From an uncultured Pelagibacteraceae bacterium (GTDB lineage Bacteria; Pseudomonadota; Alphaproteobacteria; Pelagibacterales; Pelagibacteraceae), in NCBI GenBank assembly GCA_902635845.1, contig CACPPK010000012.1:1-37198 (forward strand): a stretch of DNA of 37,198 nucleotides, read 5' to 3'. Every line of letters starts with the position of its first letter. Position 1 is the stretch's first letter. Below, piece by piece: positions 28,062 through 32,363 of this stretch. The notes beneath the pieces are model-generated. The model was not told the origin of the DNA. It searched no databases and saw nothing but the letters and a program-made list of their open reading frames with translations. A program made the translations under genes and the position numbers.

Positions 28062-31000
28062 ATGAGCGAAAAATTACTTGTTCCTGACATTGGTGACTTT
28101 GAAAATGTTGAGGTTATAGAGATACTTGTAAAACCTGGTGATCAAATTAAAGAAAATGATCCAATAGTTACAATTGAAAGTGACAAATCAAGTGTTGAAA
28201 TTCCATCTACTGTTGCTGGAAAAGTAGATAATGTAGCAGTTAAAGTTGGTGATAAAGTTTCTAAGGGAGATTTATTGCTCAATCTTACTTCATCATCAAA
28301 AACATCATCTGAAAGCACGCTTCCAAAAGATACAGAAAATATAATTAAAAAAGCTGAAGAAGCAATGGCTGAAAAAAAAGAGGAAAAAAAAATTATTAGA
28401 GAGCCAGTAGAAGAGAAAAAACAATCTACAATTCAACTTGCTAATGGTTCTGATATCGATCCACTTGAAACTCAAGATTGGTTGGAATCTTTATCTGCGG
28501 TAATTTCCAAAGATGGAAATCACAGAGCACATTTTTTAATAAAAGAATTAATTAATAAAGCTTATCGTGAAGGAGCAAATATTCCCTATACTCAAAATAC
28601 ACCATACATTAATACAATACCTCCAGAGGCTGAAGTAAAGTCTAGTGGTGATCAAAATATTGAAAGAAGAATTAGATCGTTAATTAGATGGAATGCGGCC
28701 GCGATGGTGGTACGTGCAAATAAAAAATATCCTGAACTTGGTGGACACATTGGTACATTTGCTTCTGCCGCAACATTATATGATGTTGGTATGAATCATT
28801 TTTGGAGAGCAAAAAATAACAAATTTGGTGGAGATTTAATTTATTTTCAGGGACATAGTGCTCCAGGAATGTATGCAAGGGCATTCTTAGAGGGTAGATT
28901 AAATGAAAAACAATTAGATAGTTTCAGACAAGAAGTAAAACCTGGAGGTCTATCGTCATATCCACACCCCTGGTTAATGCCAAAATTTTGGCAGTTCCCT
29001 ACAGTATCGATGGGATTAGGTCCCATGCTCGCAATATATCAAGCAAGGTACATGAAATATTTAATCAATAGAGGTTTGATTAAAGATGAAGGAAGAAAAG
29101 TATGGGCTTTTTTAGGTGATGGAGAAATGGATGAACCAGAGTCCATGGGTGCAATCGGGCTAGCAGCAAGAGAAAACTTGGATAATTTAATTTTTGTAGT
29201 TAATTGCAACCTTCAAAGACTAGATGGTCCAGTTAGAGGTAATGGAAAAATTATTCAAGAACTTGAAGGAAGTTTTAGAGGAGCTGGGTGGAATGTAATA
29301 AAAGTTATTTGGGGATCATATTGGGACTCATTGATATCTAATGATAAAACTGGTCACTTAATAAAAATTATGAATGAAACCGTAGATGGTGAGTATCAAG
29401 CAATGAAAGCAAGAGATGGTGCTTATGTAAGAGAAAAGTTTTTTGGAAAATCTCCTGAAACATTGGAATTAGTCTCAAGTATGTCTGATAAAGATATATG
29501 GCGACTCAACAGAGGTGGACATGATCCTCATAAAGTTTTTGCAGCATATGATAAAGCGACTAAACATCAGGGAAGCCCAACAGTAATAATTGCAAAAACT
29601 ATTAAAGGTTATGGAATGGGAAAATCAGGAGAAAGTGTAAATACTACTCATCAAACTAAAAAATTAGATGTTGATGACTTGATGTACTATAGAGATCGAT
29701 TTGATGTTCCCTTAACAGATGAACAGGTGAGAAATATTGAATACTTTAGGCCTGACGAAAAATCTCCAGAAATAAAATACATAAAAGAAAAAAGAATTAA
29801 ATTAGGTGGATATTTACCCGAACGTTCGACTTTCGCTAAACCAATCAAAGCACCCTCAAAAGATATTTTCGATTTCATGAAAGTATCAACTGGTGAAAAA
29901 GAAATGTCTACTACTATGGCACTTGTGAGAATGTTAACAAATTTATTAAGGGATAAAAATATATCTCCGAGACTGGTTCCTATTATTCCTGACGAAGCAA
30001 GAACGTTTGGCATGGAAGGATTTTTTCAAAAGATAGGGATTTATGCGCATGAGGGACAAAAATATGAACCTGAGGATGCAGCTCAATTAAGTTCTTATAG
30101 AGAAGATAAAAGTGGTCAAGTTTTAGAGGAAGGTATCAATGAAGCAGGTGCTATGTCTTCATGGATTGCTGCTGCCACTGCATATACTAATCATGATATC
30201 GAAATGATCCCAATTTATATTTTTTATTCAATGTTTGGTTTCCAAAGGGTAGGAGATCTAGCTTGGGCAGCTGGAGATAGTCAGGCTAGAGGATTTTTAG
30301 TGGGTGCAACAGCTGGAAGAACAACACTAGCTGGAGAAGGCTTACAACATCAGGATGGGCATAGTCATTTAATTGCATCAACTATTCCAAATTGTGTAGC
30401 TTACGATCCTACATTTCATTATGAATTAGCTGTAATTTTTCGAGAAGGTCTAAGAAGAATGCATGAGAAAAATGAGAATGTTTTTTATTATATTACAACA
30501 ATGAATGAAAATTACTCACACCCAGAAATGCCAATAGATAAAAATTGTGAGGAAGGGATTTTAAAGGGCATGTATAAAATAAAAGAATTTAAAAAATACA
30601 AAAAAACTAAAATCCAACTTTTAGGATCAGGAACAATCTTAAGGGAAATGATGTCTGCTGCAGAGATTTTACAAAATGAATATCAAATTGATAGTGAGAT
30701 ATGGAGTGTAACAAGTTTTAATGAATTAAGAAAAGATGGAATGGAGGTAGAAAGATATAATCTTTTGAACCCAGATAAAAAACCTAAAAAATCTTATGTT
30801 GAGCAATGCCTGGGCCAAACAGAGGGCCCAATTATGGCTGCATCTGATTATATGCGAATGAATTCAGATCAAATCAGATCTTATACTAATAAAACTTTTT
30901 ATTCATTAGGAGCAGATGGTTTTGGAAGAAGTGATACAAGAAAAAATTTAAGAAAATTTTTTGAGGTAGATAAAGAACATTTGGTTGCTTACGGGTTAAG

Positions 31001-31100
31001 TATTTTGGCAAAAGAACAGCTTATAACTTCTAAATATGCAAAAGATGCAATGAAGAAGTATAATATTGATAGTAACAAACCAATGCCAACAAAATTATAA
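28062..31100 (+). CDS. aceE: Pyruvate dehydrogenase E1 (homodimeric AceE) with N-terminal lipoyl domain
   Basis: 1012 residues, about 125 longer than E. coli AceE. Residues 1-78 form a complete lipoyl domain with the modifiable lysine K42 in ESDKSS. A charged linker (about 79-128) follows. From about 131 (DIDPLETQDWLES) the sequence tracks AceE closely, including ERRIRSLIRWNA, GGHIGTFASAATLYD, the thiamine diphosphate motif GDGEMDEPES (352-361) and GRSDTRKNLRKFFEVD near the end. E1 decarboxylates pyruvate and acetylates the E2 lipoyl group. The lipoyl domain is about 65% identical by eye to that of AceF, encoded immediately downstream. The fusion is in one frame without a stop, so it is not an assembly join of two ORFs. 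Confidence 0.95.
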   Translation: MSEKLLVPDIGDFENVEVIEILVKPGDQIKENDPIVTIESDKSSVEIPSTVAGKVDNVAVKVGDKVSKGDLLLNLTSSSKTSSESTLPKDTENIIKKAEEAMAEKKEEKKIIREPVEEKKQSTIQLANGSDIDPLETQDWLESLSAVISKDGNHRAHFLIKELINKAYREGANIPYTQNTPYINTIPPEAEVKSSGDQNIERRIRSLIRWNAAAMVVRANKKYPELGGHIGTFASAATLYDVGMNHFWRAKNNKFGGDLIYFQGHSAPGMYARAFLEGRLNEKQLDSFRQEVKPGGLSSYPHPWLMPKFWQFPTVSMGLGPMLAIYQARYMKYLINRGLIKDEGRKVWAFLGDGEMDEPESMGAIGLAARENLDNLIFVVNCNLQRLDGPVRGNGKIIQELEGSFRGAGWNVIKVIWGSYWDSLISNDKTGHLIKIMNETVDGEYQAMKARDGAYVREKFFGKSPETLELVSSMSDKDIWRLNRGGHDPHKVFAAYDKATKHQGSPTVIIAKTIKGYGMGKSGESVNTTHQTKKLDVDDLMYYRDRFDVPLTDEQVRNIEYFRPDEKSPEIKYIKEKRIKLGGYLPERSTFAKPIKAPSKDIFDFMKVSTGEKEMSTTMALVRMLTNLLRDKNISPRLVPIIPDEARTFGMEGFFQKIGIYAHEGQKYEPEDAAQLSSYREDKSGQVLEEGINEAGAMSSWIAAATAYTNHDIEMIPIYIFYSMFGFQRVGDLAWAAGDSQARGFLVGATAGRTTLAGEGLQHQDGHSHLIASTIPNCVAYDPTFHYELAVIFREGLRRMHEKNENVFYYITTMNENYSHPEMPIDKNCEEGILKGMYKIKEFKKYKKTKIQLLGSGTILREMMSAAEILQNEYQIDSEIWSVTSFNELRKDGMEVERYNLLNPDKKPKKSYVEQCLGQTEGPIMAASDYMRMNSDQIRSYTNKTFYSLGADGFGRSDTRKNLRKFFEVDKEHLVAYGLSILAKEQLITSKYAKDAMKKYNIDSNKPMPTKL

Positions 31101-32363
31101 ATGTCAGAAACTGAGATTAAAGTACCTAATATTGGAGATTTTAGAGATGTTGAGGTCATTGAGGTATTAGTTTCTGAAGGTCAATCAATTAAAAAAAATG
31201 ATGCTCTGGTAACAATTGAAAGTGATAAATCTAGCGTAGAAATACCATCAAATTTAGAAGGTAAAATTAAAAATTTAAAAATAAAAGTAGGAGACAAAGT
31301 TTCTGAGGGCGACTTAATTTTAACTGTAGAAAGTGATTCAGAAGTTAAAAAGGAAGGGGTTAAAAAAAAACCAGAAATTGAAAAAGAGTCAAAAAATATT
31401 GAGGTTATAAAACCTGAAATCCAAGAAAAAATGTTTTCTAAAAATAATATTTCAGACATTTCATCTGCAAGTCCAAAAGCTAGAAAATTTGCTAGAGAAC
31501 TTGGTGTAGATATTAATCAAGTAGTAGGAAGTCAGAAAGATGGCAGAGTTGTTGAAGATGATATTAAAAAATTTGTTTCATCTAATTCAAAAAACAAAGT
31601 TGTAGTGAAAGATAGTAAACCAGATAAAATTAAAAACGAATTTGAACATTATGATTTTGGCGAAATAGAAATTAAAGACATACCAAGAGTAAAAAAATTA
31701 TCATCAAAATATCTTACAAATTCATGGACAACAATTCCCCATGTTACAAACCATGATGAAGCCGACATAACTGAGATGGAAAGTTTTAGAAGTTCATTAA
31801 CAGATATGTATACTGGAGAAAAAATTAAAATTACACCTCTAGCGTTTATAATAAAGGCTTTAGTTGCATCTCTTAAGAAATTTCCTAGTTTTAATTCTTC
31901 TATCGACGAAATTGAGACTGGTAAAATGACTTTAAAAAAATATTACCATATTGGTATAGCAGTTGACACGCCAAATGGATTAATGGTTCCAAAAATAAGA
32001 AATGCAAATAACAAAAAAATTTCTCTGATAAGTAAAGAATTAAAAGAGGTAAGCGAACTTTGTAGAAATTTAAAAATTGATAAAAAAGAATTGTTTGGCG
32101 GCTCAATGACGATTACGAGTTTAGGTGGTATAGGAGGTTCATTTTTTACTCCTATAATTAATTATCCTGAAGTTGCTATATTAGGAGTAGGAAGATCAGA
32201 AAAAAAACAAATTTTTATGAATGGAAAGTTTCAAACCAGGACTATGCTGCCAATTTCTTTATCTTATGACCACAGAATTATTGATGGTGCTGAAGCAGCT
32301 AGGTTTAATAATAATCTAAAAGAAAACTTAGGCAAAAATTTTGCCTATAAACTAGCTGTCTAA
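31101..32363 (+). CDS. aceF: Dihydrolipoamide acetyltransferase (pyruvate dehydrogenase E2)
   Basis: 420 residues with one lipoyl domain (about 4-78, lysine K43), a charged linker, a peripheral subunit-binding domain (about 122-159, SASPKARKFARELGVD...GRVVEDDIKKF) and a catalytic core ending in SYDHRIIDG with H391 and D395. It transfers the acetyl group from lipoyl to CoA and forms the complex core. With a single lipoyl domain it is shorter than the three-domain E. coli E2, and the extra domain on AceE may compensate. Its ATG directly follows the aceE stop. No lpd (E3) gene follows. Confidence 0.95.
   Translation: MSETEIKVPNIGDFRDVEVIEVLVSEGQSIKKNDALVTIESDKSSVEIPSNLEGKIKNLKIKVGDKVSEGDLILTVESDSEVKKEGVKKKPEIEKESKNIEVIKPEIQEKMFSKNNISDISSASPKARKFARELGVDINQVVGSQKDGRVVEDDIKKFVSSNSKNKVVVKDSKPDKIKNEFEHYDFGEIEIKDIPRVKKLSSKYLTNSWTTIPHVTNHDEADITEMESFRSSLTDMYTGEKIKITPLAFIIKALVASLKKFPSFNSSIDEIETGKMTLKKYYHIGIAVDTPNGLMVPKIRNANNKKISLISKELKEVSELCRNLKIDKKELFGGSMTITSLGGIGGSFFTPIINYPEVAILGVGRSEKKQIFMNGKFQTRTMLPISLSYDHRIIDGAEAARFNNNLKENLGKNFAYKLAV

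What the first reader, a model, noticed from the sequence alone, without database searches (positions are those of the whole stretch)
28062..32363. Pyruvate dehydrogenase E1 carries its own lipoyl domain, closely similar to that of the adjacent E2
Seen: AceE begins with a full lipoyl domain (K42 in ESDKSS) joined by a charged linker to a complete AceE. The AceF lipoyl domain next door matches it at about 46 of 71 aligned positions by my count. Known: homodimeric E1 normally has no lipoyl domain; E2 carries one to three. Inference: a lipoyl domain was copied from E2 to E1, so E1 could present a tethered swinging arm while E2 keeps only one. That would change the stoichiometry and geometry of the complex.
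Basis: partly seen in the sequence, partly recalled or inferred. Interest (0 to 1): 0.7.

Follow-up and report, generated by a model that had tools for sequence, protein, structure and literature searches.

The report
PDH swinging arm moved to E1
In SAR11 ocean bacteria the first enzyme (E1) of the pyruvate dehydrogenase complex carries the lipoyl domain that normally sits on the second enzyme (E2), and in many SAR11 genomes E2 has none of its own, so E1 likely provides the complex's only swinging arm.

Summary
AceE (28062-31100) is a complete homodimeric E1 preceded by a full lipoyl domain, 51/80 identical to AceF's, on a ~51-residue linker. Named relatives are all Pelagibacteraceae (SAR11).

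The fusion is a family trait: 138 of 140 SAR11 E1 loci examined carry it, the other two being cut by contig ends. The lipoyl-lysine motif is kept in 134 of 134 E1 domains. None of 34 non-SAR11 AceE loci examined has it. The domain groups with SAR11 AceF lipoyl domains, so an old copy from E2 is likely.

The decisive finding lies outside the window. In 52 of 131 distinct SAR11 E1/E2 pairs AceF has no lipoyl domain and starts at its subunit-binding domain. Presence/absence needs at least 7-9 changes on the tree. In 22 such genomes the lipoyl/biotin inventory shows only BCCP-like, SucB-like and AceE frames (plus one weak partial hit in two). There E1 likely carries the only arm. E1 linkers are longer there (60.5 against 50.6 residues), but a sign test is not significant.

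Lipoyl domains on E3 and on E1beta are known; this sole-carrier AceE form I found in no paper searched. Lipoylation is untested.

The parts
28062..31100 (+). aceE: homodimeric pyruvate dehydrogenase E1 with an N-terminal lipoyl domain (1012 aa)
28062..28295 (+). Lipoyl domain of AceE (aa 1-78; PF00364 at aa 5-74)
   Evidence: profile 2-79 of the frame; mostly confident in the model
28185..28187 (+). Codon of K42, the predicted lipoylation site of AceE (ESDKSS)
   Evidence: sequence; motif kept in 134 of 134 SAR11 E1 lipoyl domains
28296..28448 (+). Charged linker of AceE (aa 79-129), mostly low confidence, with one predicted helix at aa 89-103
28449..31097 (+). AceE catalytic core (aa 130-1012)
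   Evidence: TIGR00759; aligned to E. coli AceE 1l8a
31101..32363 (+). aceF: dihydrolipoyl acetyltransferase E2 (420 aa), ATG directly after the aceE stop codon
31101..31337 (+). Single lipoyl domain of AceF (aa 1-79), absent from 52 of 131 distinct SAR11 pairs
31227..31229 (+). Codon of K43, the predicted lipoylation site of AceF
   Evidence: sequence
31467..31565 (+). Peripheral subunit-binding domain of AceF (aa 123-155)
   Evidence: PF02817
31674..32330 (+). Acetyltransferase catalytic domain of AceF (aa 192-410)
   Evidence: PF00198

Best explanation
In the SAR11 family Pelagibacteraceae the homodimeric pyruvate dehydrogenase E1 (AceE) carries its own N-terminal lipoyl domain, which likely works as a lipoylated swinging arm and, in the many members whose E2 lacks a lipoyl domain, would be the complex's only arm. 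Inferred cycle: K42 is lipoylated; the domain, tethered by a linker of 42-67 residues at the E1 N-terminus, is reductively acetylated at an E1 active site, hands the acetyl group to CoA in the E2 core, and is reoxidised by E3 docked on the subunit-binding domain that E2 keeps. Inferred origin: the SAR11 ancestor held an aceEF operon of the homodimeric type, a copy of the AceF lipoyl domain was joined to the 5' end of aceE, and the now redundant E2 domain was then lost several times.
For: Shown: the fusion in 138 of 140 E1 loci, the other two cut by contig ends. ESDKS in 134 of 134 E1 lipoyl domains. No lipoyl domain on E2 in 52 of 131 distinct pairs; there 8-37 nt lie between aceE and the subunit-binding domain, against 343-404 nt with one lipoyl domain. 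In 22 genomes with such an E2, PF00364 finds a BCCP-like frame, a SucB-like frame and AceE; 2 of the 22 have one extra weak partial hit. 14 of those 22 were scanned for Lpd: each has one, and no PF00364 hit of theirs falls in a frame of Lpd length. Seven changes of E2 state are forced by starred branches, nine on the best tree, while no E1 intact at its 5' end was seen without the domain. dN/dS of the E1 domain 0.12-0.15, like E2's own 0.12 (dS near saturation). E1 active-site residues conserved. A lipoyl-less E2 is modelled with subunit-binding and catalytic parts (mean pLDDT 82).
Against: No lipoylation, expression or activity data. E1 linkers are longer where E2 has no lipoyl domain (PGLS +7.5 aa, t 6.9), but a sign test on 7 independent pairs is not significant (median p 0.25). 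In 13 lipoyl-less E2s, all of one clade, the Asp of the DHRxxDG motif is Asn, so their activity may differ. SucB keeps a lipoyl domain that could act in trans. The lipoyl trees rest on 78-79 columns, and the E1 domains are not one clade in them. Change counts do not tell loss from regain. In the window itself AceF still has a lipoyl domain.
Confidence: 0.83

Rival explanations
1. Hybrid complex: PDH and 2-oxoglutarate dehydrogenase share subunits, the SucB lipoyl domain serves pyruvate oxidation where AceF has none, and the AceE domain only docks.
For: A SucB-like lipoyl frame is present in all 22 lipoyl-less-E2 genomes inventoried, and a single Lpd in the 14 scanned. A PDH-ODH hybrid is reported for Corynebacterium glutamicum (PMC7568260, abstract and outline).
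Against: AceE keeps the lipoylation motif in 134 of 134 domains. Lipoyl-less AceF keeps its own subunit-binding and catalytic domains. In the Corynebacterium case AceF is shared, not bypassed (abstract).
Confidence: 0.08
2. The AceE lipoyl domain is auxiliary (docking to E2, lipoate store or regulation) and not a catalytic arm.
For: In the window and in 79 of 131 distinct pairs AceF still has a lipoyl domain, so the AceE copy need not be essential there. The E1 N-terminus is where E. coli E1 meets E2 (recalled).
Against: It leaves the E2 losses unexplained (52 of 131 pairs). The second E2 lipoyl domain of genera g6 and g7 lost the lysine in 5 of 5, so a freed domain can decay, and the E1 copy has not (134 of 134).
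Confidence: 0.06
3. Assembly or annotation artefact.
For: The window's genome is 75.9% complete in 30 contigs. One locus, L229, does look chimeric behind the E2 lipoyl domain.
Against: The same E1 frame occurs in 138 loci, including single-contig genomes (G012, G062, G067, G070 with 1+1; G061, G064 with 2+1). E2 without lipoyl recurs in genomes of four genera, g1, g8, g9 and g10.
Confidence: 0.01

Closest known systems
Heterotetrameric alphaproteobacterial E1beta with an N-terminal lipoyl domain (PRK11892/NF008854; Zymomonas mobilis E1beta, title of a reference in PMC7873978)
   Same: Lipoyl domain at the N-terminus of an E1 subunit; 21 of 41 class genomes searched have the full-length match.
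   Different: E1beta, not the homodimeric AceE. Its lipoyl domains lie far from the SAR11 ones, so the SAR11 domain is not a transfer from it. A neighbouring E2 with a lipoyl domain was seen at 12 of the 14 loci read.
E3 (Lpd) with an N-terminal lipoyl domain: Neisseria, Alcaligenes, Mycoplasma hyopneumoniae PdhD
   Same: The lipoyl domain moved off E2; PMC7873978 (passages) places the lipoyl domain of the M. hyopneumoniae complex in PdhD.
   Different: The carrier is E3; none of the SAR11 genomes inventoried has a PF00364 hit in a frame of Lpd length.
E. coli-type PDC (homodimeric AceE, AceF with several lipoyl domains)
   Same: The same AceE and AceF families, in adjacent genes.
   Different: E. 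coli AceE (1l8a) has no lipoyl domain and aligns from its residue 6; the E2 chain 7b9k (recalled as E. coli) has three lipoyl stretches.
Actinobacterial OdhA (E1/E2 fusion; PMC10415282, abstract in search listings)
   Same: An E2 function moved onto an E1 polypeptide.
   Different: There it is the acyltransferase; here it is the lipoyl domain.

Membership tests
Homodimeric pyruvate dehydrogenase E1, AceE (TIGR00759) | Full-length match over the curated cut-off, while the AKGDH exception model stays under its own | tested here: met
   1429 bits against 860; TIGR03186 1292 bits against 1408
Homodimeric pyruvate dehydrogenase E1, AceE (TIGR00759) | Active-site residues (E. coli H106, H142, H407, E522, E571; roles recalled) | tested here: met
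   H229, H265, H530, E645, E694 by alignment to 1l8a, invariant in 23 sequences
Homodimeric pyruvate dehydrogenase E1, AceE (TIGR00759) | No lipoyl domain on E1 (the usual state, not part of the model) | tested here: not met
   Lipoyl domain present; absent in 34 of 34 non-SAR11 AceE loci examined
E2p-type lipoyl domain | PF00364 with the lipoyl-lysine motif ESDK | tested here: met
   nearest PDB sequences are lipoyl domains of PDH E2 and E3
E2p-type lipoyl domain | Lysine lipoylated in vivo | not testable with these tools
   Needs mass spectrometry or anti-lipoate blotting
Zymomonas-type E1beta with lipoyl domain (PRK11892) | Heterotetrameric E1beta subunit with an N-terminal lipoyl domain of shared descent | tested here: not met
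   No full-length PdhB match in G000, which is 75.9% complete; lipoyl domains split 100/100 in the tree
E3-borne lipoyl PDC (M. hyopneumoniae type) | Lipoyl domain on E3 | tested here: not met
   PF00364 inventories against Lpd frame lengths
PDC with E1 as sole lipoyl carrier | No other PDH lipoyl domain in the genome | tested here: met
   Met in 22 relatives with lipoyl-less AceF (genomes 86-99% complete; one extra weak partial hit in 2). Not met in the window itself, whose AceF has one

The most novel reading that the evidence does not exclude
SAR11 runs an inverted pyruvate dehydrogenase complex: the swinging arm belongs to E1, and in several lineages the E2 core has no lipoyl domain at all, so arm number follows E1 occupancy and each E1 dimer brings its own two arms to a bare E2/E3 scaffold.
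Probability: 0.8. Interest if true: 0.85.

Novelty: new variant of a known kind. Interest (0 to 1): 0.74.

Why it matters
PMC7873978 (passages) states that in most prokaryotes the PDH lipoyl domains lie on E2, with few exceptions. SAR11 looks like a natural experiment that moved the arm: the E1 copy is kept in every intact locus seen, while the E2 copy comes and goes. It makes directly testable whether active-site coupling needs the arm on the core, with natural 1+1, 2+1, 1+2 (second one dead) and 1+0 variants at hand. It also adds to the picture of central carbon metabolism in SAR11, described by PMC10030771 (abstract) as the most abundant heterotrophic bacterioplankton, whose aceEF that paper reports without mention of a lipoyl domain (passages).

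Tried and rejected
Descent of the AceE lipoyl domain from alphaproteobacterial E1beta: rejected by the lipoyl tree. A 456-aa partial PF00364 hit in family f2, first taken for E1beta: the locus of G038 holds membrane-fusion-like and peptidase-like ORFs by reading their translations, not PDH genes (G037's locus was only profile-scanned). Linker length as a test: strong by PGLS, not significant in independent pairs, so kept as a trend only. One origin of all E1 domains: not shown, not rejected.

Rows dropped or limited. Of 141 SAR11 loci given to the scan, one (L124, a 2-kb stretch) held no E1. Of 140 with E1, 137 had a neighbouring E2; L217, L227 and L229 did not (L229 looks chimeric; the other two loci end at or near the aceE end). 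132 distinct E1 cores remained; L230 (E2 split by a frameshift) was then dropped, leaving 131. L114 and L118 stayed in the E2 counts though their E1 is cut. Less biased: 18 of 77 E2-bearing genomes in genus g1 (80 searched) and 4 of 44 in other genera (46 searched). Row lists were capped. E1 alpha/beta subunits were not searched in the AceE-less genomes. Only 22 lipoyl-less-E2 genomes were inventoried.

Literature: searches gave nothing on a lipoyl domain in SAR11 AceE (open-licence PMC only; mostly listings). Seen in part: PMC10030771, PMC7873978, PMC7186572 (passages), PMC7568260 (abstract, outline).
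Full report
Observation. The window's aceE (28062-31100, 1012 aa) encodes a lipoyl domain at aa 5-74 (PF00364), a linker, and a complete homodimeric E1 from aa 130 (TIGR00759, 1429 bits). The aceF ATG follows its stop codon directly, and AceF has one lipoyl domain. The two lipoyl domains share 51 of 80 residues. The E1 core aligns to residues 6-883 of E. coli AceE with the active-site His/Glu residues kept (roles recalled). An AlphaFold2 model (mean pLDDT 73.6, 23 sequences) shows a fairly confident lipoyl domain (ten-residue means 69-88 over aa 1-80), a mostly low-confidence linker with one helix, and the AceE core (the best Foldseek hits are E. 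coli AceE chains).

Who has it. The 80 named loci found with a SAR11 E1 alignment are all titled Pelagibacteraceae or Candidatus Pelagibacter, so the window's family, coded f1, is Pelagibacteraceae; I infer this because the loci of f1 genomes and the named loci interleave in the E1 tree. In the order, 227 of 297 genomes have an AceE match at E 1e-60 or better, and all genomes listed with one are in f1; 17 listed f1 genomes have none. In the class sample 11 of 385 have one, five of them in f1. A profile scan found no lipoyl domain in the E1 frame of 34 non-SAR11 AceE loci (6, 28); 32 of the 34 show a neighbouring E2 frame with one to three lipoyl domains. In SAR11, 138 of 140 E1 loci carry one (133) or two (5) lipoyl domains, and the other two begin at a contig end. 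The fusion is therefore a family trait. A protein search with the N-terminal region lists 14 lipoyl-AceE proteins among its best 120 of 2002 hits; one, P0100, has two lipoyl domains in tandem.

The E2 side. Among 131 distinct E1/E2 pairs AceF has no lipoyl domain in 52, one in 74 and two in five. In lipoyl-less loci 8-37 nt separate the end of aceE from the subunit-binding domain, against 343-404 nt where one lipoyl domain is present, so the E2 starts at the subunit-binding domain. By state (E1+E2): 1+0, 52; 1+1, 69; 1+2, 3; 2+1, 4; 2+2, 1; two with E1 cut. Each of the 52 pairs with an E1 that has the domain. This set is enriched for lipoyl-less E2s. Less biased: 18 of 77 E2-bearing genomes in genus g1 and 4 of 44 in g5-g10. 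PF00364 inventories of those 22 genomes give a BCCP-like frame (119-167 aa), a SucB-like frame (436-454 aa) and AceE, with one extra weak partial hit in two. Each of 24 genomes scanned for Lpd has one match over the cut-off, in frames of 389-490 aa, the window genome's being partial. In the window's own genome PF00364 finds a 144-aa frame, AceE and AceF.

Evolution. On a 138-row E1-core tree (FastTree) E2 lipoyl presence/absence needs at least 9 changes, 7 of them forced by starred branches. Such counts cannot tell loss from regain; since 32 of 32 E2 frames seen beside non-SAR11 AceE have a lipoyl domain, mostly losses is the simpler reading. SAR11 E1 and E2 lipoyl domains form one group against other AceF lipoyl domains (100/98) and split from the E1beta/E2 lipoyl domains of other alphaproteobacteria (100/100). 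The E1 domains are not a single clade (3 changes), but one clade is not rejected (AU p 0.255); exchange between E1 and E2 copies is possible. In other alphaproteobacteria E1beta and E2 lipoyl domains interleave (10 changes).

Function. ESDKS is kept in 134 of 134 E1 lipoyl domains and 79 of 79 first E2 domains, but in 0 of 5 second E2 domains. Median dN/dS of the E1 domain is 0.15 (pairs without E2 lipoyl) and 0.12, of E2's own 0.12, of the E1 core 0.05 (dS 1.3-1.5 and pairs not independent, so rough). E1 linkers average 60.5 aa without and 50.6 aa with an E2 lipoyl domain; PGLS gives +7.5 aa (t 6.9, n 129), but a sign test on 7 independent pairs is not significant. The reading I commit to is inferred and not shown: K42 is lipoylated and the domain serves as the swinging arm between E1, E2 and E3.

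Comparison. PMC7873978 (passages) lists lipoyl domains off E2 on E3 (Alcaligenes, Neisseria; lipoylated PdhD of M. hyopneumoniae) and on E1 of Zymomonas. The E1beta form is common here (21 of 41 class genomes). New, as far as my searches reach, are the homodimeric AceE as carrier and an E2 left without any lipoyl domain beside it. PMC10030771 (passages) reports aceEF across SAR11 with no occurrence of 'lipoyl' in its main text; searches gave nothing on it. Hence a new variant of a known kind.

Noticed in passing
L087, L088, L089, L090, L114 (genera g6, g7): AceF has a second lipoyl-like domain that lacks the lysine motif in 5 of 5 and sits on very long branches: a decaying or repurposed domain.
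   Followed up: partly
L117, L134-L140, L154, L156, L157, L159, L161: Thirteen lipoyl-less E2s, one clade in the E1 tree, have Asn in place of the Asp in the DHRxxDG motif; recalled work suggests lower activity.
   Followed up: partly
G079, G110, G139, G205 (93-97% complete): Pelagibacteraceae genomes with no AceE match and only two PF00364 hits (BCCP-like and SucB-like sizes): the PDH complex may be absent, though E1 alpha/beta were not searched there. The listed genomes of family f2 also had no AceE match at 1e-60.
   Followed up: partly
L128, L129, L130 (G190, G061, G010): A second AceE-like E1 without lipoyl domain, 52-55% identical to the query; no E2 in the 12-kb stretches. Two were scanned: they score about equally on aceE and AKGDH_not_PDH, in 2-hydroxyacid/D-amino-acid dehydrogenase or TRAP-transporter surroundings. 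May bear on the multiple aceE copies of SAR11 IIIa in PMC10030771.
   Followed up: partly
L229, about 6770 onwards: aceF stops after its lipoyl domain and the frame behind it belongs to another gene: an apparent chimera of the assembly or a real deletion.
   Followed up: partly
window 28326-28370 (AceE aa 89-103): A short predicted helix in the AceE linker (KDTENIIKKAEEAMA), with similar letters in the family consensus and in g10 but not in the g9 protein read.
   Followed up: no
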